Below, one piece after another: positions 3,172 to 20,756 of a stretch of 64,000 bases of DNA. A program made the translations under genes and the position numbers. The DNA is from an uncultured bacterium. Its GTDB lineage: Bacteria > Verrucomicrobiota > Kiritimatiellia > CAIKKV01 > CAITUY01. Within the stretch, counting starts at the first letter, position 1, and the number at the start of each line of letters is the position of its first letter. Below the pieces are notes generated by a model. The model had not been told where the DNA came from. It ran no database searches and saw only the letters and a program-made list of their open reading frames with translations. The stretch is taken from positions 62,001-126,000 of the forward strand of contig CAIVSY010000078.1 in NCBI GenBank assembly GCA_903908715.1, given 5' to 3'.

Positions 3172-4278
3172 TCAGGCCTTCTGGGGACTCCGGATATTCG
3201 TGAGGATCTCGTAGGGGATTGTCTGGCACCATCGGGCCAGTTCATCCGCCCACAATGTTTCCGGCCCCTGCTGCCCGATCAGCACAACCTCATCCCCCTC
3301 CCTGACATCCGTTTCAGGCCCGAGGTCGACAGTGGCAAAGTTCATGCTGACACGTCCGACCACACGCATGCGCCGACCACGGATCAGCACCACACCCTTG
3401 TTGCTCATAAGGCGCGGGAATCCATCCGAATAACCGACATCAATAATGGCCAGACAGGTCGGCTCCACCGTGGTGTAGGTCCCAAGGTAACCCACCGATA
3501 CACCTGCGGGCATTCTTCTCACGCTCACCACGCGGGTCTTCCACTGCAGGCAGGGCTTCGTGTGTACCCGCAAGCCGGCCAGCCTCCCACTGTAACCGTA
3601 GGCAAGAATCCCGAGCCGCACACCATCCATATCCCACTCCGGATGCAGGAGGAACGCCACGCTGTTGGCAATATGCCGGAACAAGCCGGTCAGACCGGCC
3701 GCCTCCAGTTCCTGAGCAACCCGGTGGAACCGCGCGGCCTGTGCCTCCGCCTGCCGCCCTCCGGGTTGTCCGGCGGAGGCAAAGTGGGTACAGAGCCCCT
3801 GGATCAGAAGCCCGCCCGCCCCCTGCAAGCGCAGGATGATGGATGCCGCTTCCTCCCACTGAACCCCGAACCGACCCATTCCCGTATCGATCTTGATGTG
3901 ACAGGGCAGTTCCATGCCGCGCCTGCGCGCTTCCTCGCCCAGCGCCATCGCCTGGCTCTCGCTGACCAGCACCGGCACAATCCGTCGCTCCATAAGAACG
4001 CAGGCATCCTCCGGCCAGACCGCCCCAAGCAGAAGAATCTGGGCCGCAGGCAGGAAGGGTCGCAAAGCAAGCGCCTCATCCATCCGGGCCACCATGAAAC
4101 GCCGTACGCCTGACTCAAACGCATGCCGGGCCACGGCCTCCATGCCATGCCCGTAGGCGTTGGCCTTGACGACAAGGATGCATTCGGACCGCCCCGCTAT
4201 GGCTTCCCGCATCCCTTCAAGATTTTGCTTCAGGATCTCACAATCCAGTTCCGTCCACGCATTCTGCCGCACGCTCAT
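3172..4278 (-). CDS. alr: Alanine racemase
   Basis: LVVKANAYGHGMEAVARHA (PLP-lysine motif), KIDTGMGRFG, RVSMNFATVDLG. Confidence 0.95.
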   Translation of the reverse strand: MSVRQNAWTELDCEILKQNLEGMREAIAGRSECILVVKANAYGHGMEAVARHAFESGVRRFMVARMDEALALRPFLPAAQILLLGAVWPEDACVLMERRIVPVLVSESQAMALGEEARRRGMELPCHIKIDTGMGRFGVQWEEAASIILRLQGAGGLLIQGLCTHFASAGQPGGRQAEAQAARFHRVAQELEAAGLTGLFRHIANSVAFLLHPEWDMDGVRLGILAYGYSGRLAGLRVHTKPCLQWKTRVVSVRRMPAGVSVGYLGTYTTVEPTCLAIIDVGYSDGFPRLMSNKGVVLIRGRRMRVVGRVSMNFATVDLGPETDVREGDEVVLIGQQGPETLWADELARWCQTIPYEILTNIRSPQKA

Positions 4279-4333
4279 CCCTCACAACCTTCCCTGCTCG
4301 ACAACCGCCAAACCTTCACAGCCCGATGGTGGT

Positions 4334-4759
4334 TCAACCTTCCACCGCACCCCGGGCTCCTTGGCCCGGCGCCGGCAGATTCAAACGGCTGACACGAATC
4401 GGATAGCGGAGCTTGATGTCCCCATCGAGAAGAATCTCCACCCAGTAGATCCCCTCCACCTCCAACCGTGTATTCAGGAAGAACTGCACATTGGTCGAAA
4501 ACGCCTCCGGCGCGTCAAGCTTGACAGGCACCTCCTTGCTTTCCGAAATCACGGTCGTGCCGTCCGCTCCAATCAGCCGCGTCCGCTCCTGGTAGATCCC
4601 CTGCCCGCAGCACCAGCGGTTGACAATGCAGATCCGCGCGAATACTGCCGGATAAGCCGGCAATGCAATCCCGTCAAACAGGCCGATGAGAATGAACTTT
4701 CCGGACCGCTCCTGGCGGACATCATCGCACAACACACTCATTTGCAGGTCCGGAATCAT
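4334..4759 (-). CDS. Conserved hypothetical protein (DUF6941-like)
   Basis: MIPDLQMSVLCDDVRQERSGKFILIGLFDGI..; start overlaps the stop of the upstream acyltransferase gene. Confidence 0.6.
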   Translation of the reverse strand: MIPDLQMSVLCDDVRQERSGKFILIGLFDGIALPAYPAVFARICIVNRWCCGQGIYQERTRLIGADGTTVISESKEVPVKLDAPEAFSTNVQFFLNTRLEVEGIYWVEILLDGDIKLRYPIRVSRLNLPAPGQGARGAVEG

Positions 4760-5601
4760 ACGCCCTCCTGGATTCTGATTTCTCCGCCCCATTCCCTCAG
4801 ATGCGACCCCACCCACTCCACCACGGCCTCGTGGGCCTCCCGCCCTGTTGCAGACGCCGCCAGGGGTGCGCCGAAGGCAATCTGAACCACCTTACGGTTG
4901 TCAATGTATCCCAGGTCTTTGAAAACCCGCCCGTTGCCCATGAAATCGGTCTTGAGCGCCACCGGGATCACCGGAACCCCCGCCTTGGACGCCAGCTTGA
5001 CACCAAGCGAATTAAAAGCCGACACATCAAACACCGCCGACCGCGTCGCCTGGGGAAAAATCACCACCGAAATCCCCGACTGCAGCATCTCCTGCCCGCG
5101 CGTCAGCACAACCTTCAGGTCATCACGCGGATTGGCACGCCCCACGGCGATATGCTTGACCGACCGCATAATAGGGCCGAAAACGGGATATTGCAGGAGG
5201 CTTTCCTTGACCACAAAGGCCACGTCCTTGAACGGCAAGATCAACCCCGGCAGGAGCAGTGTCTCCAGCGTACTCATGTGGTTGCCGACAAAAACCACGG
5301 GGCCCGGCACCGACGCCAGATGCTCCAGCCCTGTAACCAATACCTTGCCGCCTGCCCCCTCCACAGCCCGCAACGAGGCAAAAGATCTGCCGCCATAGGC
5401 CTCCAGGTCAAACGTCCCCCGCCGGATGGACTTCCGCGCCACGACGTACACCAGGAGAACCCGGACGTGAAAGCAGAACGAACGCAACCAGCCCACCGGC
5501 CCGAAACCAAACCAGCCCCGGAAGGCCCCCGTTTCGTACCGATTCCTTTCCCGGATTTCCTCCGCGAATTCCCGGAAACTCCCAGCTCTGCCAGACGACA
5601 T
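4756..5601 (-). CDS. Lysophospholipid acyltransferase (PlsC-like, 1-acyl-glycerol-3-phosphate acyltransferase family)
   Basis: VFVGNHMSTLETLLLP (NHx4(D/E)-like), VVIFPQATRS, GVPVIPVAL. Confidence 0.87.
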   Translation of the reverse strand: MSSGRAGSFREFAEEIRERNRYETGAFRGWFGFGPVGWLRSFCFHVRVLLVYVVARKSIRRGTFDLEAYGGRSFASLRAVEGAGGKVLVTGLEHLASVPGPVVFVGNHMSTLETLLLPGLILPFKDVAFVVKESLLQYPVFGPIMRSVKHIAVGRANPRDDLKVVLTRGQEMLQSGISVVIFPQATRSAVFDVSAFNSLGVKLASKAGVPVIPVALKTDFMGNGRVFKDLGYIDNRKVVQIAFGAPLAASATGREAHEAVVEWVGSHLREWGGEIRIQEGV

Positions 5602-5771
5602 GTCATTCTCCCGCAATGTTGCGCGCCGATACTTACCACCTCGCCACCTCCGCCGCAAGCCTGCTCTCATCCTGCAGGCGGAATTCCCCTTCTTGCCGCA
5701 TCCGCCGGGGAGGCAACGCTCTTGTGTTCCTGCCGGTTGTGTGCCATAGTGCTCCTGAAGAGCCAGCGGAC

Positions 5772-7721
5772 ATGAAGCAGCATAAACAGAGCGAAACGGG
5801 GGAAGCTTCGGCCCGGATCCTCATTGTCGAGGATGAGGCAATCGTCGCCAAGGATATTTCACTTTCGCTCCGGAACCTCCGCTATCATGTGGTCGGCATT
5901 GCGGCCACCGGCGAGGAGGCCATCGGCAAGGCCGCCACCTCAAACCCCGATATCATCCTCATGGATATCCGTCTTGCAGGCAGTATGGATGGCATCGAAA
6001 CCGCGCGCGAAATCCACAAGACGCAGAAAATTCCCGTTGTCTTCCTCACCGCACATGCCGATCAGGCCACCCTGAACCGCGCCAAAACCATCGCGCCCTT
6101 CGGCTATCTGGTGAAGCCTTTCGCGGAGCGGGAACTGGAGGCCGCCCTCGAAACCGCCCTCTACCGCGCATCCATGGAGCGCAAGCTGAATGACCAGCGC
6201 CTCTGGTTCGAATCCGTCCTGAACTGCATCGGGGATGCCGTCATCGCCGCCGACGTGAACGGCTTGGTCACCTTCATAAACCCGGCAGGCGAATACCTCA
6301 CCGGATGGAAACGCGACAAGGCCATTGGGCGGGAACTCGCCGAAGTCTTCCATACCGTCGATGAACAGACCCGCCAGCAGGTCGAAGCCCCTGAAATGCG
6401 GGCCCTGCACGGCGACGTTTCCCTCCCCGAGGAAACGGAAGACATGCTCCTCGTCGCACGCGAGGGACAGGAGCGCCCGATCACCAGCACCGTGTCGCCC
6501 ATCAACGATACCAACGGCAACCTCCTGGGAATCGTGGCCGTTTTCCGCGATCTCACCGCTCGCAGGCAGTCGGAGCGCAGGGCCATGAACCGTCAGAAAA
6601 TGGAAGCCCTGGGTAAACTCTCGAGCAATATCGCCCACGACTTCAACAACATCATCAGCCTGGTCGCCGGATATGCCACCTCCATGCAGGAATACCTCCT
6701 GCCGGATTCCCGTGCTTGCGAGGATGTCAAACGCATCCTCACCGCCGTGGAGCATGCAGGCACACTCAGCAAGCGGATCCTGAACGTGGCACGCGCCAGC
6801 GATGCCGAAGGCACTCTCGCCATCCGACCGGTCCTCCTCAGCGACGCCGTCCGCGGCGCCACCAATCTCCTGCGGGGCACCCTGGACACCAAAGGCATCG
6901 CCATCAAGGATAACGTCCCCGACAAAAGTCCCCGGGTCACCGTGGACCGGGACCAGTTCATAGACATTCTCGTGGATATCGTACTCAATTCCGCGGAGGC
7001 CATGCCGAAGGGTGGCACCATCACACTCGACACCCGTTCGTTCAAACTCGGCCGCGAGGACCGCAAGCTGAATCCCCGGGCCAAGCCCGGCCCCTATGCG
7101 GTCCTCCGGATCCGCGATTCAGGCAAGGGCATGTCGCACGAGACCCTTGACCGGATCTTTGAACCTTTCTTTACCACCAAGCCGGACGAAAACCACGTCG
7201 GACTGGGTTTGTCGGTCGTCTATAACGCTATTCAGCGATATGGGGGCTGGATCCGCGTATCCAGCAAACAGGACCGGGGGACCACATTCAACATCTATCT
7301 GCCCGTAGGAGTACCGGAGGAAACCGTGACCACTGCAACCACTACCGCATCCCAGACCATCCTCATCGTGGATGACGATGAAAGCACACGCAGGGAACTC
7401 CATCTGATTCTCAAGCAGGCCGGATTCAAGATCCTGACCGCGGCAGACGGCAAGGAGGCGGTCTCCCTCTATAGTCTTCACGCCTCCAAGATCAACCTGA
7501 CCATACTCGATGTCATCATGCCAGGAATGGACGGACGTCAGGTATTCGAGGAAATTACACGGATTAACCCATCCGCTATTGTCCTTATGCTGAGCGGATT
7601 CTCCCGCGAATACGTTCGCAGCTACCTGCCGGGCGGCCCCTGGCGCTTCATCCAGAAACCGTTCGAAGCGGAACAGATTGTCAGCACCACCCGCCGACTC
7701 CTGGAACAGAAACCCACATGA
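5772..7721 (+). CDS. Hybrid sensor histidine kinase, REC-PAS-HisKA-HATPase-REC
   Basis: N-terminal REC (ILIVEDEAIVAKD...ILMDIRLAG..PVVFLTAH..GYLVKPF), PAS, H-box SSNIAHDFNNIISLVAGY, ATPase boxes (RDSGKGM, GLGLSVVYNAI), C-terminal REC (ILIVDDDES...LDVIMPGMDG). Confidence 0.93.
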   Translation: MKQHKQSETGEASARILIVEDEAIVAKDISLSLRNLRYHVVGIAATGEEAIGKAATSNPDIILMDIRLAGSMDGIETAREIHKTQKIPVVFLTAHADQATLNRAKTIAPFGYLVKPFAERELEAALETALYRASMERKLNDQRLWFESVLNCIGDAVIAADVNGLVTFINPAGEYLTGWKRDKAIGRELAEVFHTVDEQTRQQVEAPEMRALHGDVSLPEETEDMLLVAREGQERPITSTVSPINDTNGNLLGIVAVFRDLTARRQSERRAMNRQKMEALGKLSSNIAHDFNNIISLVAGYATSMQEYLLPDSRACEDVKRILTAVEHAGTLSKRILNVARASDAEGTLAIRPVLLSDAVRGATNLLRGTLDTKGIAIKDNVPDKSPRVTVDRDQFIDILVDIVLNSAEAMPKGGTITLDTRSFKLGREDRKLNPRAKPGPYAVLRIRDSGKGMSHETLDRIFEPFFTTKPDENHVGLGLSVVYNAIQRYGGWIRVSSKQDRGTTFNIYLPVGVPEETVTTATTTASQTILIVDDDESTRRELHLILKQAGFKILTAADGKEAVSLYSLHASKINLTILDVIMPGMDGRQVFEEITRINPSAIVLMLSGFSREYVRSYLPGGPWRFIQKPFEAEQIVSTTRRLLEQKPT

Positions 7722-8908
7722 GCCCAACCCATCCGGCCCATGGCCTGCTGACAGGAATGGATGTCTTGCTTACGGAGTTCCCGGACTGGATCCGGAACGC
7801 CCGTATCGGCCTGGTCAGCCACCAGGCTGCCGTGGATCAGTCGGGGCGCACCAGCGCAGAAAGGCTCCACGAATGTCCGGGAGTCAGACTATCGGCCTTG
7901 TTCGGGCCTGAGCATGGGTTTAGCGGTGTCGCACTGGCGGGGGAATCAACCCGGGATGAGCGCCACGGGGACTGGAATATCCCGGTCTACTCGCTGTATG
8001 GAGAATCCCGTTCCCCTTCCCCTGAATCACTGGAGTCCCTCGATCTCCTGGTCGTGGAACTGCAGGACCTCGGGGCCAGACCGTACACCTATGTTTCCAC
8101 CTTGCGCCTGGTCCTGGAGGCCGCGTCCAAGGCACGCAAGCCTGTCATCGTGGCGGATCGCCCAATCCCCCTGGCATCACAGTCGGACGGCCCTTTCCTG
8201 GATCCGCGCTATGCCTCGTTTGTCGCCCTCATCCCCACCCCCATGCAGTACGGCATGACACAGGCGGAAACCGCCCTCTATCTGCGCGAAACCCTGCAAC
8301 TGGACCTGGATCTGCGCGTAGCCCCCATGCGGAATTATCACCGCAACCCGGTGCCGGAAAACCATTGGCCCCGCTGGGTCCCCCCCTCACCCCGCATCCG
8401 CTCCTGGTCCTCAGCCTGCCTGTTTTCCGCGACCGTCTTCGGCGAGGCGCTCCCCGCTATCGACTACGGGTCAGGGTCCGAACTCGCCTTCCAGGTCGTC
8501 GGCGCCCCGTGGCTGAACGCAAACGCCCTTTGCAGGAGCTTCAATGAGGATGCGGCGGAGGGCGTCATCCTGACCCCCTGTCGCTATCTGTCCGCTTCCG
8601 GCGCCTACAGGGGACAGGAACTGGAAGGCGCCCGCCTGACCATCCGGAACCCCCAGTCCTTCCGCCCGGTAACCACTTCCGTCATCCTGCTCGACCATAT
8701 CCACCGCAACGATTCCGAAAACCGCCTGTGGACCGCGCCGGATACAAGACCGGATTGGTTTGACAAGCTCTACGGAACCCATACTGTTCGAAAAGCCCTC
8801 CAGGCCGGGACACCGGGAAGAATTCTCGCTCAATCATGGAACCCTGATCTGGCGGCCTTCGGAATCCTTCGGTCCAGGCACCTGCTGTACTCCGGGGGGA
8901 ACGCATGA
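7718..8908 (+). CDS. namZ: DUF1343 / NamZ-like exo-beta-N-acetylmuramidase
   Basis: GLVSHQAAVDQSGRTS, LFGPEHGFSGVALAGE, DLLVVELQDLGARPYTYVSTL; ATGA overlap with the upstream kinase gene. Confidence 0.85.
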   Translation: MSPTHPAHGLLTGMDVLLTEFPDWIRNARIGLVSHQAAVDQSGRTSAERLHECPGVRLSALFGPEHGFSGVALAGESTRDERHGDWNIPVYSLYGESRSPSPESLESLDLLVVELQDLGARPYTYVSTLRLVLEAASKARKPVIVADRPIPLASQSDGPFLDPRYASFVALIPTPMQYGMTQAETALYLRETLQLDLDLRVAPMRNYHRNPVPENHWPRWVPPSPRIRSWSSACLFSATVFGEALPAIDYGSGSELAFQVVGAPWLNANALCRSFNEDAAEGVILTPCRYLSASGAYRGQELEGARLTIRNPQSFRPVTTSVILLDHIHRNDSENRLWTAPDTRPDWFDKLYGTHTVRKALQAGTPGRILAQSWNPDLAAFGILRSRHLLYSGGNA

Positions 8909-10824
8909 AGCCCCCGGACAAAGCCGTCATCCTGGCTGCCGGTTACGGCGAGCGCCTCCTGCCCCTGACACGGGTGCGCCCCAAGCCGCTGGTGCCGATC
9001 TGGGGCAAACCCGTTCTCCGGCATGCGATGGAAATGCTGCGAAGCTGGGGTGTGCGGGATGTCCTCGTGAACGCCCATTACCATGCAGGCGCCCTTCTGG
9101 AATACCTGCGCAGCCATCCTGTACCCGGCCTCCGGATTCAGATCTCCTTTGAACCGGAAATCCTTGGCACAGGCGGCCCGCTGGTCCGGGCCCGCTGGTT
9201 CACCGGCATGGAACCGTTCTGGATGATGAACGCCGATGTTCTTGCCGATGTCAACCCGGCCGCGTTCCGCCGGGCCTTCACCCGGAAGAACGTCATCGCC
9301 GCCCTTTGGATGCACCCGTCCCGCGGGCCCCGCACCGTGGAGATCACGCGGGATACCATCCGATCGTTCCACAGCCGGAATCCGGGCTCACCGGGCACCT
9401 GCACATTCTGCGGTCTCCAGCTTCTGTCCCCCCGTATCCTGCAGTACCTGCCTCCATCAGGTTTTTCAAGCATCATCCAGGCTTATGAAAAGGCCTTGCA
9501 GTCGGGCGAACGGATCGCCCCGATTGTCACCCCGGACGCGTTCTGGGCCGACATCGGTACTCCCGCATCCTATCTGGAGGCCCATTCAGAAATCCGAAGC
9601 GCGGCCCGACGGGGACAATCCGGCGCCCGCCTGTTCTCCGCGGCATCCTGCCGTTCCACCGGCAAGATCTGGATCGCCACCGAAGGCAACGTGACCCTCT
9701 CGCCACAGGCCCGGCTATGGAATTCGGTCGTGTGGGACCGCGCCGTCATCGGCCCCCGGGCCGATATCCGCAACGCCATCATCACAGGACCGGCAACGGT
9801 AAATGAACCACTGGAATACATGGCACTACCCGCCGCCGGGCTTGGGGATGAAACCTTGGACAGCCTTCTTCGGGAGCTGGGATGGGACCCTGCCGCCACC
9901 GTCCTGAATCCCCTGCCCCCGCGCGGATCCGCGCGCTCCTTCACCCGCCTGCTCCAGGGTCGGCGGCGCGCCATTCTCATACGGTACAGCACCGAAAGGC
10001 CGGAAAACGCCTTCTACGCCGGTCACGCCCGCTTTCTCGCAAGGCACAGCGTACGCGTCCCCGCTGTACTCGCAGACCATCCCGAGGCAAACCTCTGCAT
10101 ACTGGAAGATGCCGGCCATGACAGCATCGAATCGCTCGCTCCGTCCCTCTCCCCGGCCCGCCTTCGCACGCTGTACCTCCGCACACTGGAGGCGGTTTTG
10201 CGCTTGCATGGACCCGCCACCCGCGCCGCCGCCCGAACACGCATGGAACTGTGCCCGGCCTTTGACCGGCGCCTTTTCCTCTGGGAACACAACCTGTTCT
10301 GCGAGGAATTCCTGCAACGCCACTGCAAACTGCCAAGAGTCGCCATCACAAACGCCCGCGCGGAACTCGAAAACCTGCTTCCCACCCTGCTGGCCGCCCC
10401 ACCGGTCCTTCTGCACAGGGACCTGCAATCGAGCAATGTCCTTGTCGTACGGGGGCAGCCGGTGCTGATCGATTTCCAGGGCATGCGGTTCGGTCCGGCC
10501 GCCTATGATCTGGCGTCCCTTTTCCATGACCCGTATGTCAACCTGCCGGAATCCCTGGTGCAGGAACTGCTCGGGATCTACATTCAGAATACCCCGGACG
10601 GGAACCGGCGCAGGGCAGAACTGCCGGTAGCCGCAGCCCAGCGGCTCGCCCAGGCTCTGGGCGCCTATGGCCGCCTCGGGCACAACCCGGCTACGGCAGG
10701 ATTCCTGCGCCATATCCCCGCGGGAGTCCGCCAGTTCCTTGCCGCAGCCCGCAGCACAGGATTGCTGCCAGGGCTATGCCGGACCCTCGAACGCTGGCAA
10801 GATGAACAGGAGCCGCGCCAATGA
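8905..10824 (+). CDS. Fused nucleotidyltransferase (MurU-like) and aminoglycoside-phosphotransferase-family kinase (AmgK-like)
   Basis: N-terminus AVILAAGYGERLLPLTRVRPKPLVPIWGKPVL; middle hexapeptide-like region; C-terminus LLHRDLQSSNVLVVRGQPVLIDFQGMRFGPAAYDLASL (APH fold). Confidence 0.85.
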   Translation: MKPPDKAVILAAGYGERLLPLTRVRPKPLVPIWGKPVLRHAMEMLRSWGVRDVLVNAHYHAGALLEYLRSHPVPGLRIQISFEPEILGTGGPLVRARWFTGMEPFWMMNADVLADVNPAAFRRAFTRKNVIAALWMHPSRGPRTVEITRDTIRSFHSRNPGSPGTCTFCGLQLLSPRILQYLPPSGFSSIIQAYEKALQSGERIAPIVTPDAFWADIGTPASYLEAHSEIRSAARRGQSGARLFSAASCRSTGKIWIATEGNVTLSPQARLWNSVVWDRAVIGPRADIRNAIITGPATVNEPLEYMALPAAGLGDETLDSLLRELGWDPAATVLNPLPPRGSARSFTRLLQGRRRAILIRYSTERPENAFYAGHARFLARHSVRVPAVLADHPEANLCILEDAGHDSIESLAPSLSPARLRTLYLRTLEAVLRLHGPATRAAARTRMELCPAFDRRLFLWEHNLFCEEFLQRHCKLPRVAITNARAELENLLPTLLAAPPVLLHRDLQSSNVLVVRGQPVLIDFQGMRFGPAAYDLASLFHDPYVNLPESLVQELLGIYIQNTPDGNRRRAELPVAAAQRLAQALGAYGRLGHNPATAGFLRHIPAGVRQFLAAARSTGLLPGLCRTLERWQDEQEPRQ

Positions 10825-11180
10825 AACATCCGTGGATCCAAGCCCTGCACAGGGTTGCCGCCCCGATCCGAAAACTGATCGTCTTCACCATCGGAACCAC
10901 CGTGGTACTCATCGGGATCGCAACCATTGTCCTGCCGGGCCCGGCCTCACTGATCATTCCTGCCGGCCTGGCGATCCTGGCAATCGAGTTTGTGTGGGCC
11001 CGCCGTCTTCTGAAGCACACCAAGGATATGATGGCCTCTGCCGCCAATAAGGTCGGAATGGGTCGGTTTTTCAGCTCCCGCCAGCCCCCGTCTGACCCCG
11101 CTTCAGCGCCTGATACCGCTCCGTGTACCGAGCCCCCATCTGCGACTCGCGATGGTCAAAACCAAAAGCCCTCCGCTTGA
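10821..11180 (+). CDS. PGPGW-domain small transmembrane protein
   Basis: IVLPGPASLIIPAGLAILAIEFVWARRLLK; ATGA overlap with the upstream gene. Confidence 0.75.
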   Translation: MKHPWIQALHRVAAPIRKLIVFTIGTTVVLIGIATIVLPGPASLIIPAGLAILAIEFVWARRLLKHTKDMMASAANKVGMGRFFSSRQPPSDPASAPDTAPCTEPPSATRDGQNQKPSA

Positions 11181-13268: not shown

Positions 13269-16200
13269 TCAGCGTTCGCGCCGCAGGTTGAGCGTCATGG
13301 CTTCCCCGGCTTCCCCGAGCGTCATTGTCAGCGTGTTGAGATCGGGCGAGACGGTCATCTTGACCTCGTTCTCCTTGCCGGGATTCAGCGTGACAAGATG
13401 GCCCCGGATGAACCCCGAAAACCGGTTCGACTCGGTCATCTCGTCGGCCTTGATGGACATGTCTGCCGTGATGTTGTTTCCGGACTGAACGATGACACAT
13501 CGGACCGTCATGCTTTGCCCCCCTTCGCTGAGGGTTTGCGAAAATGTGCCGTTCAGCGAGGGTGCGGAAGCGGATTGTGCCGGCGGGGGCGACTTGGGCT
13601 GCAACGGCGTCGCCGGCGCCCGGGGTGGCACAGGTTTTTCCGGGGTGGGCACGGTCTTGGCGGCTGGGGGTAATGCGGGTGTGGCCGGCTTGGGGGCCGG
13701 ACGCGACGCTGTGTTGACCGGGGCCGCCGGGGTGGGTGCCGTAGAAGCGGCTGCCCCGGATTTGGCGGCTCCCGTGTTGGTCGTTGGCCTGGCCGTGGAC
13801 CAGACGGCATCAGTCACTTGCTTGACGGAGAGCCACGCCTCCAACTTGTCCAGATAGGCACGGCGCTCTGACGTTTCCTTGAGGGCCAGGCTCTGCTTGA
13901 ACTTCGCGGCGGCGCCCTTGTAGTTGGCGGCATCATACAAGGTACGCCCCTCCGCCCAAAGTGCGTCCGCCTTCGCGCCGGACTCGGAACCGGCGATCTT
14001 CTGTTCCAGCAGGGAAATATGCTTTTCAAGGGCGGGATCCGGCCAATAACCAAGACTCTCCCTGTACTTGGCCACTGCCCTGCCCAATTCGTTCTTCTCC
14101 TGGAACGCAGCCCCTTCGGCGCGGAGCTGACGCGCCTTTTCCTTACGGCCCATGCGATCGGTGAGTTCCGCGATGCGTTGCTGGACGACGGAATCAGGCC
14201 GGATGGCGAGCGCCTGGCGGAACTTTTCGACCGCCTCGAACAGCTTGTCCTGCTTCTGGAGAGCCTCCCCTTCGGCGATAAACCGGGCTCGGTCGCTTTC
14301 CCTTTCATTCGCGGCCGCAACGGCACGCTCATACGCGGAAGCCGCGTCCTTGACCGGTGCATACCGCGGATGCATCTGGCGAGCCTTGTCCAGCGCGGCG
14401 GCGGCCGACGCAAGATCAGGCTTCCGCAAGGCGTCGTTGACTTGTGCGACGTACTGCAGGACCTGCTGGCGTTCGGTGGTCCATTTCGCTTGCAGGCTGG
14501 GTGCCTCCGTGTTTTTCGGATCCAGTGCGGCGGCTTCCCCGGCGAGGGAGAGGCCTTCCTCGAGGCGTCCTTCGGCCACAGCCGATTGCGCCTGGGCCAG
14601 CTTGGCGCCGGCCCCGGAAATCATCGGCTTCCCTGGGTCGGCAGCGACGGAGAGCTGTCCTGCGCCCGTGCCGAGTTCGATGCCGCGGTCGTCCTTGATC
14701 CTGACGGCAAGGCTGTAGGTGCCCGGCTGGCTGGCATTGACGCGTGTTTCCCTGCTGGCCGGGCTGTAGACGGAGCAGCCCTCGGGCGAGGCGCTCCATT
14801 CGTAGCGCACGGTGCGCGGGCACTGCGGGTTCACGGTGGCGGCGAAGAAGACTTCCTGGTGCACGACGGTGCCGGACTGCACCTCGACCAGGCCCTTGGC
14901 CTGTTCACTCCACACGCGCGGCTTCGGTCCCGAGTGGCGCGGGCCGGTGACGTTGACCTGGTACGGTCGGGCGGTGAGGGAGGCCTTGGCTTCGCCGAGG
15001 TCGTCGCCATGGTGTTGAAGCCTGGCCATGGCCCTGATGGCGATAGTTCGGGTATCGAGCGAGTAGAAGGTAACCTCGCGCGAGTCCTTGGATTCGCCGA
15101 TCTGTTTGGCGTTCGAGGGCAGTTCCCAGCGGCAATCCAGCTCCGGCAGTTCGGGCGTGACGGTGAGCTTCACGGTTACGTCCTCACCGACCAGCGGGTC
15201 AGCCGGGGTGCATTCCAGGGCAATCTTGGGCGGGACGACTTCGACCTCGACGGGTTCTGACGAGGCGACGGTTTTCATGGTGCCGCCTTCCTTGCGCAGG
15301 ACGTCAACCCATATGCGTGTTTTCTGTGGCCTAAGGAACCGGGCGGTTGTGGCCGCCGCGCCGGCACGGCCGGTGAATTCGACTTCAGGGTGCGGCTGCC
15401 AGGAGAACTCGAGGCCTTCCTGTGGGGCGGCCTTACCACCCTGCTGGACCGTGGCGGTCAGGTTAGCCGTGGTGCCTACGGGCACGGGCTGCCCCGGGAT
15501 GCCGGACACGCTCACCGTGAGCTCGCCAACGGTGAAGGTTGCCGTTGCCTCGCCGATCGCGCGGCCCTTGGCGCCGGTGACCTTGACGGAAACCTTGAAC
15601 GATCCGTTGCCCTTGGCAGTAAATTCCGCGCCGGATTCCGAGGATGTGTCGACGCCGGTCCAGGCGTAGGAAAGGGGATGGTCGTCCAGCAGCGCATTGG
15701 AGACCAGGGCCTTGAGCTTGACGGTTTCGCCGGGGGAGAGCTGGGTGGAGTCGGGCACAAGGTTCAGCGAGACGGTAGAGCCCGTTGCCGGGGTCCAGCC
15801 GCAGGCCGATGGGGAGGGGGCATTTTCGGGTTGGCCGTTGTAACCGTCATTCCATCCCTTGAGCCAGGCATTCACGATGATGGGGTCGTGGGTGCAGACA
15901 GCGGTGGTCGGGGAGGAAGGCGGTGCAGTTTTGATTTCCGGACCTTTGATCATGACCAGAGCTCCGGAGGCATCGTGGCCATACGTAGCGTTGTGGATCC
16001 TTTTCATGCCGTCATTAACCTTCGCAACGTTTCCAAGATGGTAGCCATCCTTGTAGGCGTTTTCGACCCAACGCCTGACAGCCCCTTCGCCGGAGACGAT
16101 GTAGAGCTCCTGCACGGCGCCGAATTCCTTGACGGCTCTGGCCTTCAGTTGCAGGTAGGCGTCCTGCAGTTCCTTGAGGGCTGGCGCGGCGCCATTGTCG

Positions 16201-19200
16201 TAGCCACGGAGGAACGCGAGGCCGAGGACAGGGTTGTGGGCGTGGCGAGGGAGGGTGAAGCGCCAGTCGTAGACGCCGGACATCTTTGCCGTCTTGGCCT
16301 CACCGGCGATCATGCTGCCGTCGGCGTAGGCGGCGGCGATTTCTGCGGCGGAAGCCGTGGGGACCGCGTCCTGCTTGGGTGGCTGAGTGCCGGGCGGTGA
16401 CGTTTTGTCCGTCTTTGGTGGCGTGCTGGTTGGCGGCGTGTCGCCCTGCTTCGTCGAGCCGCCTGTGCCGCCTTCCGGCGGGGGCGGCGGCTGGCGTTCG
16501 TCGCCGATGTCGATCACGTGTGTTGCCCGTGCCAGAATCCGGCGGGAACGTCCTTCCCCAATCACGGCGCGGGCATCGAACTCATAGTGTCCCGGGCGGC
16601 TGGTGTCCATGCGCAACGTTCCCCCGGTTTCGTAGACGACGTCGTTGACCGTCCATTCGATCCAGGCGTCCTTCCTGAGGCGTTCGGCGGCCGGTGCGAG
16701 CGCGCGGATTTCCGCTAGGATTGAGACTTCGGCGTTTACCTTGGCGCTGGCGGGGCCCTTGACGGCGACGGCGAGCAGGGCCGCGGGGTCGCTGACGGTG
16801 ACGGTGTGGCGTGCGGAGGCGGTTTTCGCATCCCCGTTCGCGGGCTGGAATGTGCCGCGCAACTCGACATCGTAGGAGCCGCGGTTCAGCCGGCCAAGAT
16901 CGAGCCGTTGGCCGACGGCGTTGCGTTTGCCGTTGAGGAACCACTCCAGTTTGACCGTTTCGCGTGAGGCGGAGGGTATTCCGACGGCCGTGCCAGACAG
17001 GGCGACGCTGTCGCCCTCGATGTACTGGGACTCGCCGGTAATGTTCACCGCAAAGCCATCGCCAGAGACCTCGAACTCGACGGTCTTCGATGCGACCGGC
17101 TGGGGTTGCCCATTGGCGTCCTCGACCAGGAGTATCAGTTTGACCGACGCGGCACCGGACATGGGGGCCACCACGTCGGCCGAGTAGGCCTGCTGGCTGC
17201 GGACCGTGCAGTTCTTTCCGCTCCAGTCAAGGCGTGTCCCGGTGTTGTAGAAACGCTCGGGAATATCCGCGGTGAACTTCACGGTCGCGCCGGGCCCCGG
17301 TTTCTTCGGCTCCATGCTGACGCTCAGGAGGTCGTCCGGCATGCTCACGCGCACGGTGCGCTGGACGACGCCCTTGACCTTCTCCCTGCCTGAACGCTCG
17401 ACGGTGGCGGAGAGGGTTGCCGGCGGGAGTTTGTTGGCGGCAAAGCGCAGTTTTTCGCCGGCGGCATCGGTCGGCATGAACGTGCCGGCAGGCGTGGCGC
17501 TCCAACGGATGGTAAAGGGGTTGTCCTGGTGTTCCTTGGCCAGGGTTGGATCCGAGAAGCGCAGTTCCACGTCGGCGGCCTCGTCGAGCACCAGCGGGGC
17601 GGGGGAGACCACGATCGTGGACCCCTTGTTGAGGCGTCGGTTGAAATCCGCATTGAGGTTGTAGAGGGCGCGGACCTTTTCAAGGGCGGCCTCGTATTCC
17701 TCGAAATACTTTGAGCCCTCGGGAGGCTGGGCCGAGTCCGATTCATCGAGGGCGGTTCGCCAGGGGAATACGACCGAGGCGAGCAGATCAAACGCCTGGG
17801 CGTCGATGGTATCGGCAGGGTCCGGAGCGGAGCCCTTGATCCTCGTGATATCCCCCGTGATGCGGCTCAAGGCCGAGGCGAATCCGGCGCGGGACTGTTC
17901 GGACTTGCGGGTTTCCTGCTCCATATCGCCGCTCCAGGAGAAGCCAAGAACCCGGGTCCGTGCGAAGCCGGTGCGGGTCCGGATGGTTTCCGGAATCTCC
18001 ACGTTCCTGTCGTAGATGGATTTGTAGGCGGCATAGGCCTTTTCCCAGTATTGTCCGCTGGTCAGCCTCTTTTCCTCCTTTGTATCGGTCGCCCCGAAAA
18101 CCGCGCTGTCGCTGGCATTGGCGAGGGCGGTGGCCTTTTCGCGGACGATGTCCACAAGGTTGACGCCCAGGGGGGAACCGCGCAAGGCTTCCAGGTTCTT
18201 CTGCAACTCCTCCAGCTTTGGCGCCAGGTCGTTCTCGGCGTTCAGGGTGGCGTACTTCTGCTCCGCCATGGCGATGAGCTGGGGAACCATCCACTCCTGC
18301 AGGACAACGTCCTTGCGCTTTTCCACCTGGTCCTTCAGGTTCTGGTAAAGTTTGGCCCAGGGCTTGCCCTTGTCGCTTTCCGCGATGTACTCAAAGCCGC
18401 CCATCCAGATGAGATATCCGCCCAAAAAGTACCTGGACGCCTCCTCCCAGTTGATGGCGTCGAGGTGGGACTGCACGGCCGCGCGCATCTGGGCGAGGGC
18501 CGGATCGTTGGCCAGGTAGTGGGAGTTGAAGACGTTAAAGGCCTTTTCAGAGAGGTTGTTGATCCAGTACTCCTTACCGGGGACCGCATGCTTGACGCGG
18601 ACCGCCTTGGTCTCGAACAACCACTTATAGACCTGGTCCCTGGCGATGGTGTCGCCACCGGGCAATTCCAGGCGCTTGAGGCGGTAGCTGTTTCCCTCCT
18701 TTTCAAAGGCACCGTTATAGGTCAGGACATCGACAAGGCCTTCACTCTCGTTCTGGAGCTGGACGGCGCCGCCAACCGTCCAGGACATGACAAGGACATC
18801 ACCCGCCAGCACAAAGGGCCAGGCCGGGGTGAAGTAGAGCGCCTCCTTGGCGAACATGAGCGCCGTACCTGCGGTGATGCCCTCGCAGCCGGCTTTCTTG
18901 ACGGCCATGCCCATAGGGACGAAATCAATGATGACGAAGGCGGCGCTGCTGAGGTCCTTCATGTCGCCCTTCTGCCATTCGGAATACATGGCGTAGAGGA
19001 CAAACGGTGCGTTGGCGACGGCCTCGATGGCGAATTTTGAGCCGGTTTCGCTGGCCAGTAGTTTCCAGAGGAACGAATCGCCCTTCGTATCGGCGAGCAT
19101 CTTCTGGAGTTGCCTGGCGCTTTCCCCGCCGGTGGTTCCAGCCATGCGTTCGCTGCCGACTTCGGCGAGGAGTTGGCGGGTCTTTGTGCCACCAACTCCG

Positions 19201-20648
19201 GCTTCCTTCATGCCGGCGACGAGGCCCTCGGCGGAACCGGCCCTGACCCATGTGTTGACTCCACGGGCGATGCCGTCCTCCGCCGCTGCGGCGGTGAGCG
19301 TGCCGGCGTCCACAGCGGCCGTATAGAGCACCTTGTAGAGGAGCGAGACGCTGTCCGCCCCGGATCCGCCCAGGGCCTTGAGCATGCCGGGGATGACGTC
19401 CTGGATGATGCGGCCGTGTCCCGACGAGTGCAGGAGGGAGAAGCCGGCGGCCAGTTCGTGGATCATGCGGCGCAGCTCGGGGTGGCGGGCGATATTGACG
19501 GCGCCCTTGCCGGCTTCCCGCTCGGCCTGGCGGACCATTTGCTGAACCTTGCGGCAGGTGCTCAGCATCACGGATTCGAAGGCATCCAGTTGGAGCGTCA
19601 TCAGGTCATGGCGCCGGAGCAGCGCGCGGGCGGCGTTACCGCTCTTGTCCTTGTAGGCGGCCATGAGCTGTTCGCCCATCTCCTGGAAGTAGGAGGACTG
19701 CCGCCCCCCCATACTGGCGGCATCGCCGAAAGAACCGGCCGCCTGCATGGAGGCGTAGATGCGGAGCAGGTATTTCACCTGCTCCCGCTCCGAAAGGTTC
19801 GGATGGAGCATCTGGCGCGTGCAACTGGTGTACATGGTCAGGGGGCCGAACCGCTTGAGATCCGAGGCGATCTGCGCCATGTCCATGATTTCCGCCAGGG
19901 TGCTGCCACCGTTCTTCTGGACGTAGTCAGCCAGGGTGATGGCAACCGGCTTCAGGGCTCCCCCTTCACGCTGCAAAATGATGGCACCGCCCTTCTCGAC
20001 CATCTCCTGCTTGATTTTACCGAAGCCGGCGGCCCCGACAAAGGCGTCGGGATCCTGGATCTGCTTGACCAGCAGGTCGTAACTGGTGGCATCGGGAATC
20101 GGCGACATGGCAAAGCCCTTGCACCGGGCGTTTCTGAGTTTGCGGGCATCCTTCAGTTCATTGAAACGGCGGGCGGCTTCCTCACCGCGGGGACCGAGAA
20201 AGGAGATGTCGTCATCCGAGTTCAGCAAATCATACCGTCCTTCGGAAGGCGCCTGTCCGGACAGGTTCATGTGGCGGTCGCCGGAAGAACCCGTCCGGAT
20301 GACCGCTTCGACGCCATCCCCCATTTCGGAGGCCACCTGGGCGGCCAGTTCCTCGGCCAGCTTCATCTGGCGCCGGTCCACCGATTGAAACACCTTGCGC
20401 ATAAAGGCCTCGCCCTGGCTCCCGCCGCCGCCGATCCGGATCGCCTCCTGCTTGAAGAGGGTACGAATCGCGGGGTCGTTGCGATCCACCATTGCCTGAA
20501 GGGAATCGATGAGATCAGGCGTCAGCCCGGAGGTCTTCCCCTGCTCCAGCAACTGCAGGACGGATGGAGGCAGGTCGGCGGCCTGCAGCAGCACGGGCGA
20601 TAACGCGATGGCGATCGTGAGAAGAACGGAACGGCGCGGGTGTTTCAT
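13269..20648 (-). CDS. Giant (~2,459 aa) secreted multidomain protein: signal peptide, helical N-terminus, Ig/PKD-like domains, Pro-rich linkers, TPR-like region, small C-terminal beta domain
   Basis: Uninterrupted ORF; MKHPRRSVLLTIAIALSPVLLQAAD signal peptide; repeated Ig/PKD-like segments; TPR-like helices (RFIAEGEALQKQDKLFEAVEKFRQALAIRPDS); Pro-rich segments PPPPPEGGTGG.. and PAPKPATPALPPAAK.. Confidence 0.85.
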   Translation of the reverse strand: MKHPRRSVLLTIAIALSPVLLQAADLPPSVLQLLEQGKTSGLTPDLIDSLQAMVDRNDPAIRTLFKQEAIRIGGGGSQGEAFMRKVFQSVDRRQMKLAEELAAQVASEMGDGVEAVIRTGSSGDRHMNLSGQAPSEGRYDLLNSDDDISFLGPRGEEAARRFNELKDARKLRNARCKGFAMSPIPDATSYDLLVKQIQDPDAFVGAAGFGKIKQEMVEKGGAIILQREGGALKPVAITLADYVQKNGGSTLAEIMDMAQIASDLKRFGPLTMYTSCTRQMLHPNLSEREQVKYLLRIYASMQAAGSFGDAASMGGRQSSYFQEMGEQLMAAYKDKSGNAARALLRRHDLMTLQLDAFESVMLSTCRKVQQMVRQAEREAGKGAVNIARHPELRRMIHELAAGFSLLHSSGHGRIIQDVIPGMLKALGGSGADSVSLLYKVLYTAAVDAGTLTAAAAEDGIARGVNTWVRAGSAEGLVAGMKEAGVGGTKTRQLLAEVGSERMAGTTGGESARQLQKMLADTKGDSFLWKLLASETGSKFAIEAVANAPFVLYAMYSEWQKGDMKDLSSAAFVIIDFVPMGMAVKKAGCEGITAGTALMFAKEALYFTPAWPFVLAGDVLVMSWTVGGAVQLQNESEGLVDVLTYNGAFEKEGNSYRLKRLELPGGDTIARDQVYKWLFETKAVRVKHAVPGKEYWINNLSEKAFNVFNSHYLANDPALAQMRAAVQSHLDAINWEEASRYFLGGYLIWMGGFEYIAESDKGKPWAKLYQNLKDQVEKRKDVVLQEWMVPQLIAMAEQKYATLNAENDLAPKLEELQKNLEALRGSPLGVNLVDIVREKATALANASDSAVFGATDTKEEKRLTSGQYWEKAYAAYKSIYDRNVEIPETIRTRTGFARTRVLGFSWSGDMEQETRKSEQSRAGFASALSRITGDITRIKGSAPDPADTIDAQAFDLLASVVFPWRTALDESDSAQPPEGSKYFEEYEAALEKVRALYNLNADFNRRLNKGSTIVVSPAPLVLDEAADVELRFSDPTLAKEHQDNPFTIRWSATPAGTFMPTDAAGEKLRFAANKLPPATLSATVERSGREKVKGVVQRTVRVSMPDDLLSVSMEPKKPGPGATVKFTADIPERFYNTGTRLDWSGKNCTVRSQQAYSADVVAPMSGAASVKLILLVEDANGQPQPVASKTVEFEVSGDGFAVNITGESQYIEGDSVALSGTAVGIPSASRETVKLEWFLNGKRNAVGQRLDLGRLNRGSYDVELRGTFQPANGDAKTASARHTVTVSDPAALLAVAVKGPASAKVNAEVSILAEIRALAPAAERLRKDAWIEWTVNDVVYETGGTLRMDTSRPGHYEFDARAVIGEGRSRRILARATHVIDIGDERQPPPPPEGGTGGSTKQGDTPPTSTPPKTDKTSPPGTQPPKQDAVPTASAAEIAAAYADGSMIAGEAKTAKMSGVYDWRFTLPRHAHNPVLGLAFLRGYDNGAAPALKELQDAYLQLKARAVKEFGAVQELYIVSGEGAVRRWVENAYKDGYHLGNVAKVNDGMKRIHNATYGHDASGALVMIKGPEIKTAPPSSPTTAVCTHDPIIVNAWLKGWNDGYNGQPENAPSPSACGWTPATGSTVSLNLVPDSTQLSPGETVKLKALVSNALLDDHPLSYAWTGVDTSSESGAEFTAKGNGSFKVSVKVTGAKGRAIGEATATFTVGELTVSVSGIPGQPVPVGTTANLTATVQQGGKAAPQEGLEFSWQPHPEVEFTGRAGAAATTARFLRPQKTRIWVDVLRKEGGTMKTVASSEPVEVEVVPPKIALECTPADPLVGEDVTVKLTVTPELPELDCRWELPSNAKQIGESKDSREVTFYSLDTRTIAIRAMARLQHHGDDLGEAKASLTARPYQVNVTGPRHSGPKPRVWSEQAKGLVEVQSGTVVHQEVFFAATVNPQCPRTVRYEWSASPEGCSVYSPASRETRVNASQPGTYSLAVRIKDDRGIELGTGAGQLSVAADPGKPMISGAGAKLAQAQSAVAEGRLEEGLSLAGEAAALDPKNTEAPSLQAKWTTERQQVLQYVAQVNDALRKPDLASAAAALDKARQMHPRYAPVKDAASAYERAVAAANERESDRARFIAEGEALQKQDKLFEAVEKFRQALAIRPDSVVQQRIAELTDRMGRKEKARQLRAEGAAFQEKNELGRAVAKYRESLGYWPDPALEKHISLLEQKIAGSESGAKADALWAEGRTLYDAANYKGAAAKFKQSLALKETSERRAYLDKLEAWLSVKQVTDAVWSTARPTTNTGAAKSGAAASTAPTPAAPVNTASRPAPKPATPALPPAAKTVPTPEKPVPPRAPATPLQPKSPPPAQSASAPSLNGTFSQTLSEGGQSMTVRCVIVQSGNNITADMSIKADEMTESNRFSGFIRGHLVTLNPGKENEVKMTVSPDLNTLTMTLGEAGEAMTLNLRRER

Positions 20649-20756
20649 TGTTGACTCACTCTGTTGTGGATGGAAAAACCCACCGCATAGGCGGCGCATG
20701 CAAGCCTCGACAGAGAGGGTCACCCCGTGATCGCGAAGGCATCCCCCTTCTGTTGA

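What the first reader, a model, noticed from the sequence alone, without database searches (positions are those of the whole stretch)
5772..11180. Sensor-coupled MurNAc-recycling module: four genes chained by ATGA overlaps
A REC-PAS-HK-REC sensor, a NamZ-like (DUF1343) exo-muramidase, a fused MurU/AmgK-like protein and a PGPGW membrane protein are linked by exact 4-nt ATGA overlaps at 7718-7721, 8905-8908 and 10821-10824. NamZ is known to release MurNAc from peptidoglycan fragments. AmgK and MurU convert MurNAc to MurNAc-1-P and then UDP-MurNAc, bypassing de novo synthesis and fosfomycin. Placing a hybrid sensor kinase first in the same translationally coupled unit suggests a sensing-plus-salvage system. 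Family names and overlaps are visible; the regulatory link is inference.
Basis: partly seen in the sequence, partly recalled or inferred. Interest (0 to 1): 0.75.

Follow-up and report, generated by a model that had tools for sequence, protein, structure and literature searches.

The report
Cytosolic NamZ with fused MurU–AmgK salvage enzyme
A group of little-studied bacteria (Kiritimatiellota) appears to recycle a cell-wall sugar by an unusual route, with the sugar-releasing enzyme inside the cell next to one fused enzyme that recharges the sugar; the sensor gene in front of them is a local addition whose role is unproven.

Summary
In detail: four same-strand genes (hybrid kinase, NamZ, NTP-transferase–APH fusion, PGPGW) are joined by exact 4-nt ATGA overlaps. 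The interpretation splits. Well supported: NamZ and the fusion form one module. Across 117 genomes of this Kiritimatiellota class they are present or absent together (86 both, 24 neither, 7 discordant), adjacent in 24 of 85. The fusion's best family models are MurU and AmgK, below curated cut-offs, with catalytic motifs invariant in 60 copies. Canonical AnmK and AmpG are undetected in the class and MurQ nearly so, while MurA and MurC are present in nearly all; NamZ therefore looks like the MurNAc source. New here: 54 of 56 sampled class NamZ proteins form one fully supported clade without an evident signal peptide, whereas most sampled NamZ of other classes of the phylum have one. This points to a cytosolic exo-muramidase, unlike the extracellular or periplasmic NamZ of Bacillus and Tannerella. 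Weakly supported: the sensor. It is linked in only 6 genomes of one order, absent from a sister genus that keeps the module, and retained in one genome that lost the module from the same locus. PGPGW recurs in one other genome. Most likely: a NamZ-fed UDP-MurNAc salvage variant. Nothing was tested biochemically.

The parts
5772..7721 (+). Hybrid histidine kinase, REC-PAS-HisKA-HATPase-REC, 649 aa, no transmembrane segment, catalytic motifs present
   Evidence: Pfam; motifs and hydropathy; start choice by relatives
7718..7721 (+). ATGA stop/start overlap, kinase to NamZ
   Evidence: sequence; -4 overlap recurs in relatives
7718..8908 (+). NamZ-family exo-beta-N-acetylmuramidase (NamZ_N + NamZ_C), no evident signal peptide, PEHG motif at residues 64-67
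   Evidence: Pfam; PDB relatives 4k05, 4jja; N-terminus; invariants; tree
8905..8908 (+). ATGA stop/start overlap, NamZ to fusion
   Evidence: sequence; recurs in relatives
8905..10824 (+). Fused sugar-1-phosphate nucleotidyltransferase (MurU-like) and APH-type sugar kinase (AmgK-like), 639 aa
   Evidence: Pfam, NCBIfam, conserved motifs in 60 orthologues
8920..9597 (+). NTP_transferase domain (residues 6-231), best model MurU
9598..9804 (+). Linker (about residues 232-300) resembling the start of the repeat region of GDP-mannose pyrophosphorylases; assignment is inference
   Evidence: PDB alignment of residues 6-290 to 7d72_K
9928..10599 (+). APH kinase domain (residues 342-565), best model AmgK; HRD...N and DxQ motifs
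10821..10824 (+). ATGA stop/start overlap, fusion to PGPGW
   Evidence: sequence
10821..11180 (+). Small PGPGW membrane protein; probably co-transcribed but not a conserved member
   Evidence: Pfam; hydrophobic stretch and a relative only in L038/G003

Best explanation
namZ and the fusion make a UDP-MurNAc salvage module. Peptidoglycan fragments with MurNAc at the non-reducing end (for example MurNAc-GlcNAc from endo-glucosaminidases) enter the cell; NamZ, in the cytosol, releases free MurNAc; the kinase half phosphorylates it to MurNAc-1-P and the nucleotidyltransferase half makes UDP-MurNAc for MurC, bypassing MurA/MurB. Shown by computation: gene order, family assignments, shared presence/absence, absence of a signal peptide, lack of detected AnmK/AmpG and near-lack of MurQ, presence of MurC/MurA. 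Inferred: substrate, cytosolic location, importer, flux. In this order the genes are probably co-transcribed with a hybrid kinase; whether it senses or controls the pathway is not shown.
For: Profile over 117 genomes: 86 both, 3 fusion only, 4 NamZ only, 24 neither (Fisher p about 1e-17, not corrected for phylogeny); within-genus joint absences in f10/g14 (G020, G037 against G048) and f15/g19 (G070). Adjacent on the same strand in 24 of 85 genomes, ten families. AnmK: no convincing hit in the class; MurQ over cut-off in 3 of 117; AmpG over cut-off in none; MurC in all, MurA in 114; E. coli rings as a positive control in these searches. No signal peptide in class NamZ, present in most out-of-class NamZ; 54-row clade, support 100/100; PEHG and other invariants kept. 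MurU and AmgK are the best models for the two halves. MurU shares PGTxTFxG and WxDxGT with the fusion; T167, G170, W214, D216, G218, H504, D506, N511, D523, Q525 are invariant in 60 copies. The AmgK/MurU route to UDP-MurNAc is experimental in Pseudomonas and supported in Caulobacter (PMC5371407, PMC13046382).
Against: Family scores are below curated cut-offs, and GDP-mannose pyrophosphorylases align about as well to the first domain. Fusions at 28-36% identity occur in other classes of the phylum, several in genomes without detected NamZ, so the fusion does not always need NamZ. No importer was identified. Absence of a signal peptide is not proof of cytosolic location. Incomplete assemblies can create false absences. 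No usable structure model.
Confidence: 0.62

Rival explanations
1. One reading: the hybrid kinase senses cell-wall state or a salvage intermediate and controls the coupled salvage genes.
For: Kinase-namZ-fusion order with -4 overlaps kept in six genomes of three families at 34-61% identity; kinase has an intact H-box and phospho-acceptor sites.
Against: Module without kinase in G001, G004, G005, G006; kinase without module in the same place in G011; relatives next to an ABC transporter in G035 and G019; no output domain and no dedicated response regulator in the unit.
Confidence: 0.2
2. The fusion makes another nucleotide sugar (for example UDP-GlcNAc from the GlcNAc that NamZ also frees, or a GDP- or CDP-sugar), and NamZ linkage reflects general amino-sugar use.
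For: AmgK is named a MurNAc/GlcNAc kinase in NCBIfam; mannose-1-P guanylyltransferases and archaeal GlmU score close to MurU; fusions exist without NamZ elsewhere in the phylum.
Against: MurU and AmgK are the top models for the two halves independently; PGTxTFxG is shared with MurU and not with mannose enzymes; NamZ co-occurrence in the class.
Confidence: 0.22
3. NamZ is exported by a non-Sec route or leaves by lysis, and acts outside as in Bacillus; the fusion salvages imported free MurNAc.
For: Characterised NamZ enzymes are extracellular or periplasmic (PMC13204101, PMC10465942).
Against: Signal peptide consistently missing from one 54-member clade while sampled relatives outside mostly have it.
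Confidence: 0.12

Closest known systems
Pseudomonas/Caulobacter anabolic recycling route (AnmK-MupP-AmgK-MurU)
   Same: Predicted AmgK and MurU steps giving UDP-MurNAc and bypassing MurA/MurB (PMC5371407, PMC13046382)
   Different: Here AmgK and MurU are one polypeptide; AnmK and AmpG are not detected; NamZ is the proposed MurNAc source; MupP was not tested
Tannerella forsythia MurNAc scavenging (NamZ1/NamZ2, MurT, AmgK, MurU)
   Same: NamZ-type enzymes release MurNAc that ends in UDP-MurNAc (PMC7670621, PMC10465942)
   Different: Tannerella muramidases are described as periplasmic and it lacks MurA/B; here NamZ has no signal peptide, MurA is present, and NamZ and the fusion are adjacent genes
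Bacillus subtilis NamZ
   Same: Same two-domain NamZ family
   Different: Described as extracellular in the Gram-positive route (PMC13204101); B. subtilis uses the etherase route (established knowledge), here MurQ is nearly absent
CckA-like hybrid histidine kinases
   Same: PAS-HisKA-HATPase-REC with HDFNN H-box; best NCBIfam hits include CckA
   Different: Extra N-terminal REC, no membrane segment, scores far below CckA cut-offs

Membership tests
NamZ exo-beta-N-acetylmuramidase family | NamZ_N and NamZ_C domains above curated cut-off | tested here: met
   205 and 100 bits against 26.9 and 25
NamZ exo-beta-N-acetylmuramidase family | Conserved PEHG region with the likely catalytic glutamate | tested here: met
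   P64 E65 H66 G67 at least 95% conserved in and out of class; the catalytic role is recalled, the original paper was not held
NamZ exo-beta-N-acetylmuramidase family | Export signal, as in characterised members (a property of known members, not a definition of the fold family) | tested here: not met
   No evident signal peptide in class NamZ, present in most out-of-class controls
NamZ exo-beta-N-acetylmuramidase family | Release of MurNAc from the non-reducing end | not testable with these tools
   Needs enzyme assay
MurU | NCBIfam equivalog score above cut-off (250 bits) | tested here: not met
   103.7 bits, best of all models
MurU | Nucleotidyltransferase signature, Mg-binding Asp, WxDxGT and PGTxTFxG | tested here: met
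   Alignment to 4y7t and conservation in 60 orthologues
AmgK | NCBIfam equivalog score above cut-off (550 bits) | tested here: not met
   73.4 bits, best model
AmgK | APH fold with catalytic HRD...N and metal DxQ | tested here: met
   APH 6e-19; invariant H504, D506, N511, D523
AmgK/MurU | Activity on MurNAc and MurNAc-1-P | not testable with these tools
   Needs enzyme assay
Pseudomonas-type anabolic recycling | AnmK feeding the route | tested here: not met
   Only three short partial hits in 117 genomes, two barely over cut-off, none in the window's genome
Sensor-coupled operon | Kinase co-occurs with namZ-fusion in relatives | tested here: inconclusive
   Linked in six genomes of one order, separable both ways

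The most novel reading that the evidence does not exclude
A class-wide peptidoglycan salvage route with no AnmK, AmpG or (nearly) MurQ: MurNAc-GlcNAc-type fragments are imported whole, cut in the cytosol by a relocated NamZ, and the MurNAc is channelled through one bifunctional kinase-uridylyltransferase, with a phosphorelay kinase tuning it in one order.
Probability: 0.3. Interest if true: 0.7.

Novelty: new variant of a known kind. Interest (0 to 1): 0.5.

Why it matters
If true, a whole class of Kiritimatiellota recycles MurNAc by a route that differs from the E. coli, Pseudomonas and Tannerella schemes in where MurNAc is released and in what enters the cell. It predicts an unknown importer of MurNAc-containing fragments, gives a direct path from NamZ to UDP-MurNAc, and adds a gene-level marker for peptidoglycan turnover in a poorly cultured group. 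The fused enzyme would be a convenient one-pot MurNAc to UDP-MurNAc catalyst. It also shows how a lineage-specific regulator can be taken for a core part when one genome is read.

Tried and rejected
AlphaFold model of the fusion from a three-sequence alignment: mean pLDDT 36, discarded, no fold search run. NagZ search: no hit over cut-off in 117 genomes, many weaker GH3-type hits that cannot be told apart. Single-protein scan of genome contigs gave three relatives, useful only for naming the group. The original NamZ paper (PMC8054146) is not held. Weak MurQ hits (about 1e-4 to 1e-27) rejected as partial matches inside other proteins, probably SIS-domain proteins (the SIS reading is inference). 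PGPGW considered as a fourth core member and rejected. Recurrent neighbours of the fusion in other loci (a sigma-70 factor, an Mfd-like helicase, a Ham1-family protein, an RlmL-like methyltransferase, tRNA-modification and tRNA-synthetase genes) look like housekeeping genes and were not taken as pathway members. Literature searches found no description of a MurU-AmgK fusion or a cytosolic NamZ in the held library, which covers only part of the literature.

Full report
Observation. The three ATGA overlaps are exact and at the stated coordinates. The four ORFs are as described, and Pfam confirms the domains: Response_reg, PAS, HisKA, HATPase_c, Response_reg; NamZ_N and NamZ_C; NTP_transferase and APH; PGPGW. 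The fusion's best NCBIfam models are MurU for the first half and AmgK for the second, also when the halves are scanned apart, but at 104 and 73 bits against cut-offs of 250 and 550. The window lies in a 3.05 Mb, 118-contig genome, 91% complete. Named relatives of its NamZ are a PVC-group bacterium and a Kiritimatiellae bacterium, so the window is placed in Kiritimatiellota by inference.

NamZ and the fusion belong together. The fusion occurs through the class: 89 of 117 genomes by my threshold. NamZ was found in 90 of 117. Both are present in 86, neither in 24, with 3 and 4 discordant; restricted to genomes of at least 80% completeness the table is 82, 3, 2, 21. The Fisher p-value (about 1e-17) ignores shared ancestry, but joint absence recurs inside genera whose other members have both (G020 and G037 against G048; G070 in g19). 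The two genes lie next to each other on the same strand in 24 of 85 genomes in ten families, often with a 4-nt overlap. A wider phylum draw shows exceptions, for example G246 with a fusion and no NamZ hit, and G292 with NamZ and only a weak fusion hit.

Surrounding pathway. MurC is found in all genomes and MurA in 114 of 117, including the window's genome, so peptidoglycan synthesis is present and salvage is an addition. AnmK is essentially absent: three short partial hits, none in the window's genome. MurQ passes its cut-off in 3 of 117 and AmpG in none. The same searches ring in E. coli among the control genomes. NagZ could not be settled. With AnmK, AmpG and MurQ missing or rare, NamZ is the plausible source of free MurNAc.

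A cytosolic NamZ clade. In the class, coding starts shortly before the conserved core and no Sec-type hydrophobic segment is evident. The measure is a simple hydropathy scan of in-frame upstream sequence; in the few high-scoring cases, L036 and L063, the stretch lies upstream of the nearest ATG. In 20 NamZ loci of other classes of the phylum most carry a typical signal peptide; L140 and L150 do not. A maximum-likelihood tree separates 54 of 56 class sequences from all out-of-class ones with 100/100 support; two class sequences, L101 and L126, fall on the other side. The PEHG region and other invariants are kept. Characterised NamZ enzymes are extracellular in Gram-positives (PMC13204101), and the N-acetylmuramidases of Tannerella are described as periplasmic (PMC10465942). 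Cytosolic location is inference from sequence.

The fusion. In 60 class copies the nucleotidyltransferase and kinase motifs are nearly or fully invariant, including N109/D111, T167-F168-x-G170, W214-x-D216-x-G218, H504-R-D506, N511 and D523-x-Q525. The PGTxTFxG stretch is shared with MurU (4y7t) and not with mannose-1-phosphate guanylyltransferases, which otherwise align equally well. Full-length relatives at 28-36% identity exist in other classes of the phylum, partly in genomes without detected NamZ. The fused architecture is therefore older or wider than the NamZ link.

The sensor. Full-length relatives of the kinase precede namZ-fusion in G002, G003, G013, G012 and G016, besides the window, each with a -4 overlap option. 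That is a conserved operon inside one order. It is not a fixed pair: genus g2 (G001, G004, G005, G006) has namZ-fusion without it, and G011 has the kinase at 50% identity directly followed by nadE at 67% identity, 36 nt apart, with namZ, fusion and the full PGPGW gene gone. Since the window and G003 also have nadE after the module, this looks like an in-place loss with the kinase kept. In G035 and G019 a relative follows an ABC transporter gene (PF16949); in G036 and G014 other genes. The kinase has no membrane segment and no DNA-binding output. A regulatory role is possible and untested.

PGPGW. A relative near the fusion was found only in G003. It is probably a passenger.

Judgement. The most likely reading is a variant of the known AmgK/MurU salvage route with a cytosolic NamZ as the entry enzyme and a fused kinase-uridylyltransferase. 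What is shown is gene content, order, conservation and signal-peptide status. Substrate, location, import and regulation are inferred. I rate it a new variant of a known kind.

Noticed in passing
L095 (G011:C23), about 5100-8936: Kinase relative and nadE side by side with namZ, fusion and PGPGW missing: an apparent in-place loss of the salvage module with the kinase kept.
   Followed up: yes
L096 (G035) and L097 (G019): Kinase relatives directly downstream of a PF16949 putative ABC transporter gene in two families, suggesting another role for this kinase type.
   Followed up: partly
G016, G088, G095 (search hits only): No or only a weak MurA match although NamZ and fusion are present; could be MurNAc-dependent strains or assembly gaps.
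   Followed up: no
L101 (G075) and L126 (G097): Two class NamZ sequences fall with the out-of-class clade, possibly transferred genes.
   Followed up: partly
window 11071-11180: The PGPGW gene and the convergent nadE ORF overlap tail to tail by about 110 bases; the same convergence is seen in G003.
   Followed up: partly
window 13269-20723: A very long ORF (2484 aa, minus strand) that reads as a large repeat-containing protein; not studied.
   Followed up: no
window 3172-5670, minus strand: Alanine racemase, a DUF6941 protein and an acyltransferase lie divergently upstream of the kinase.
   Followed up: no
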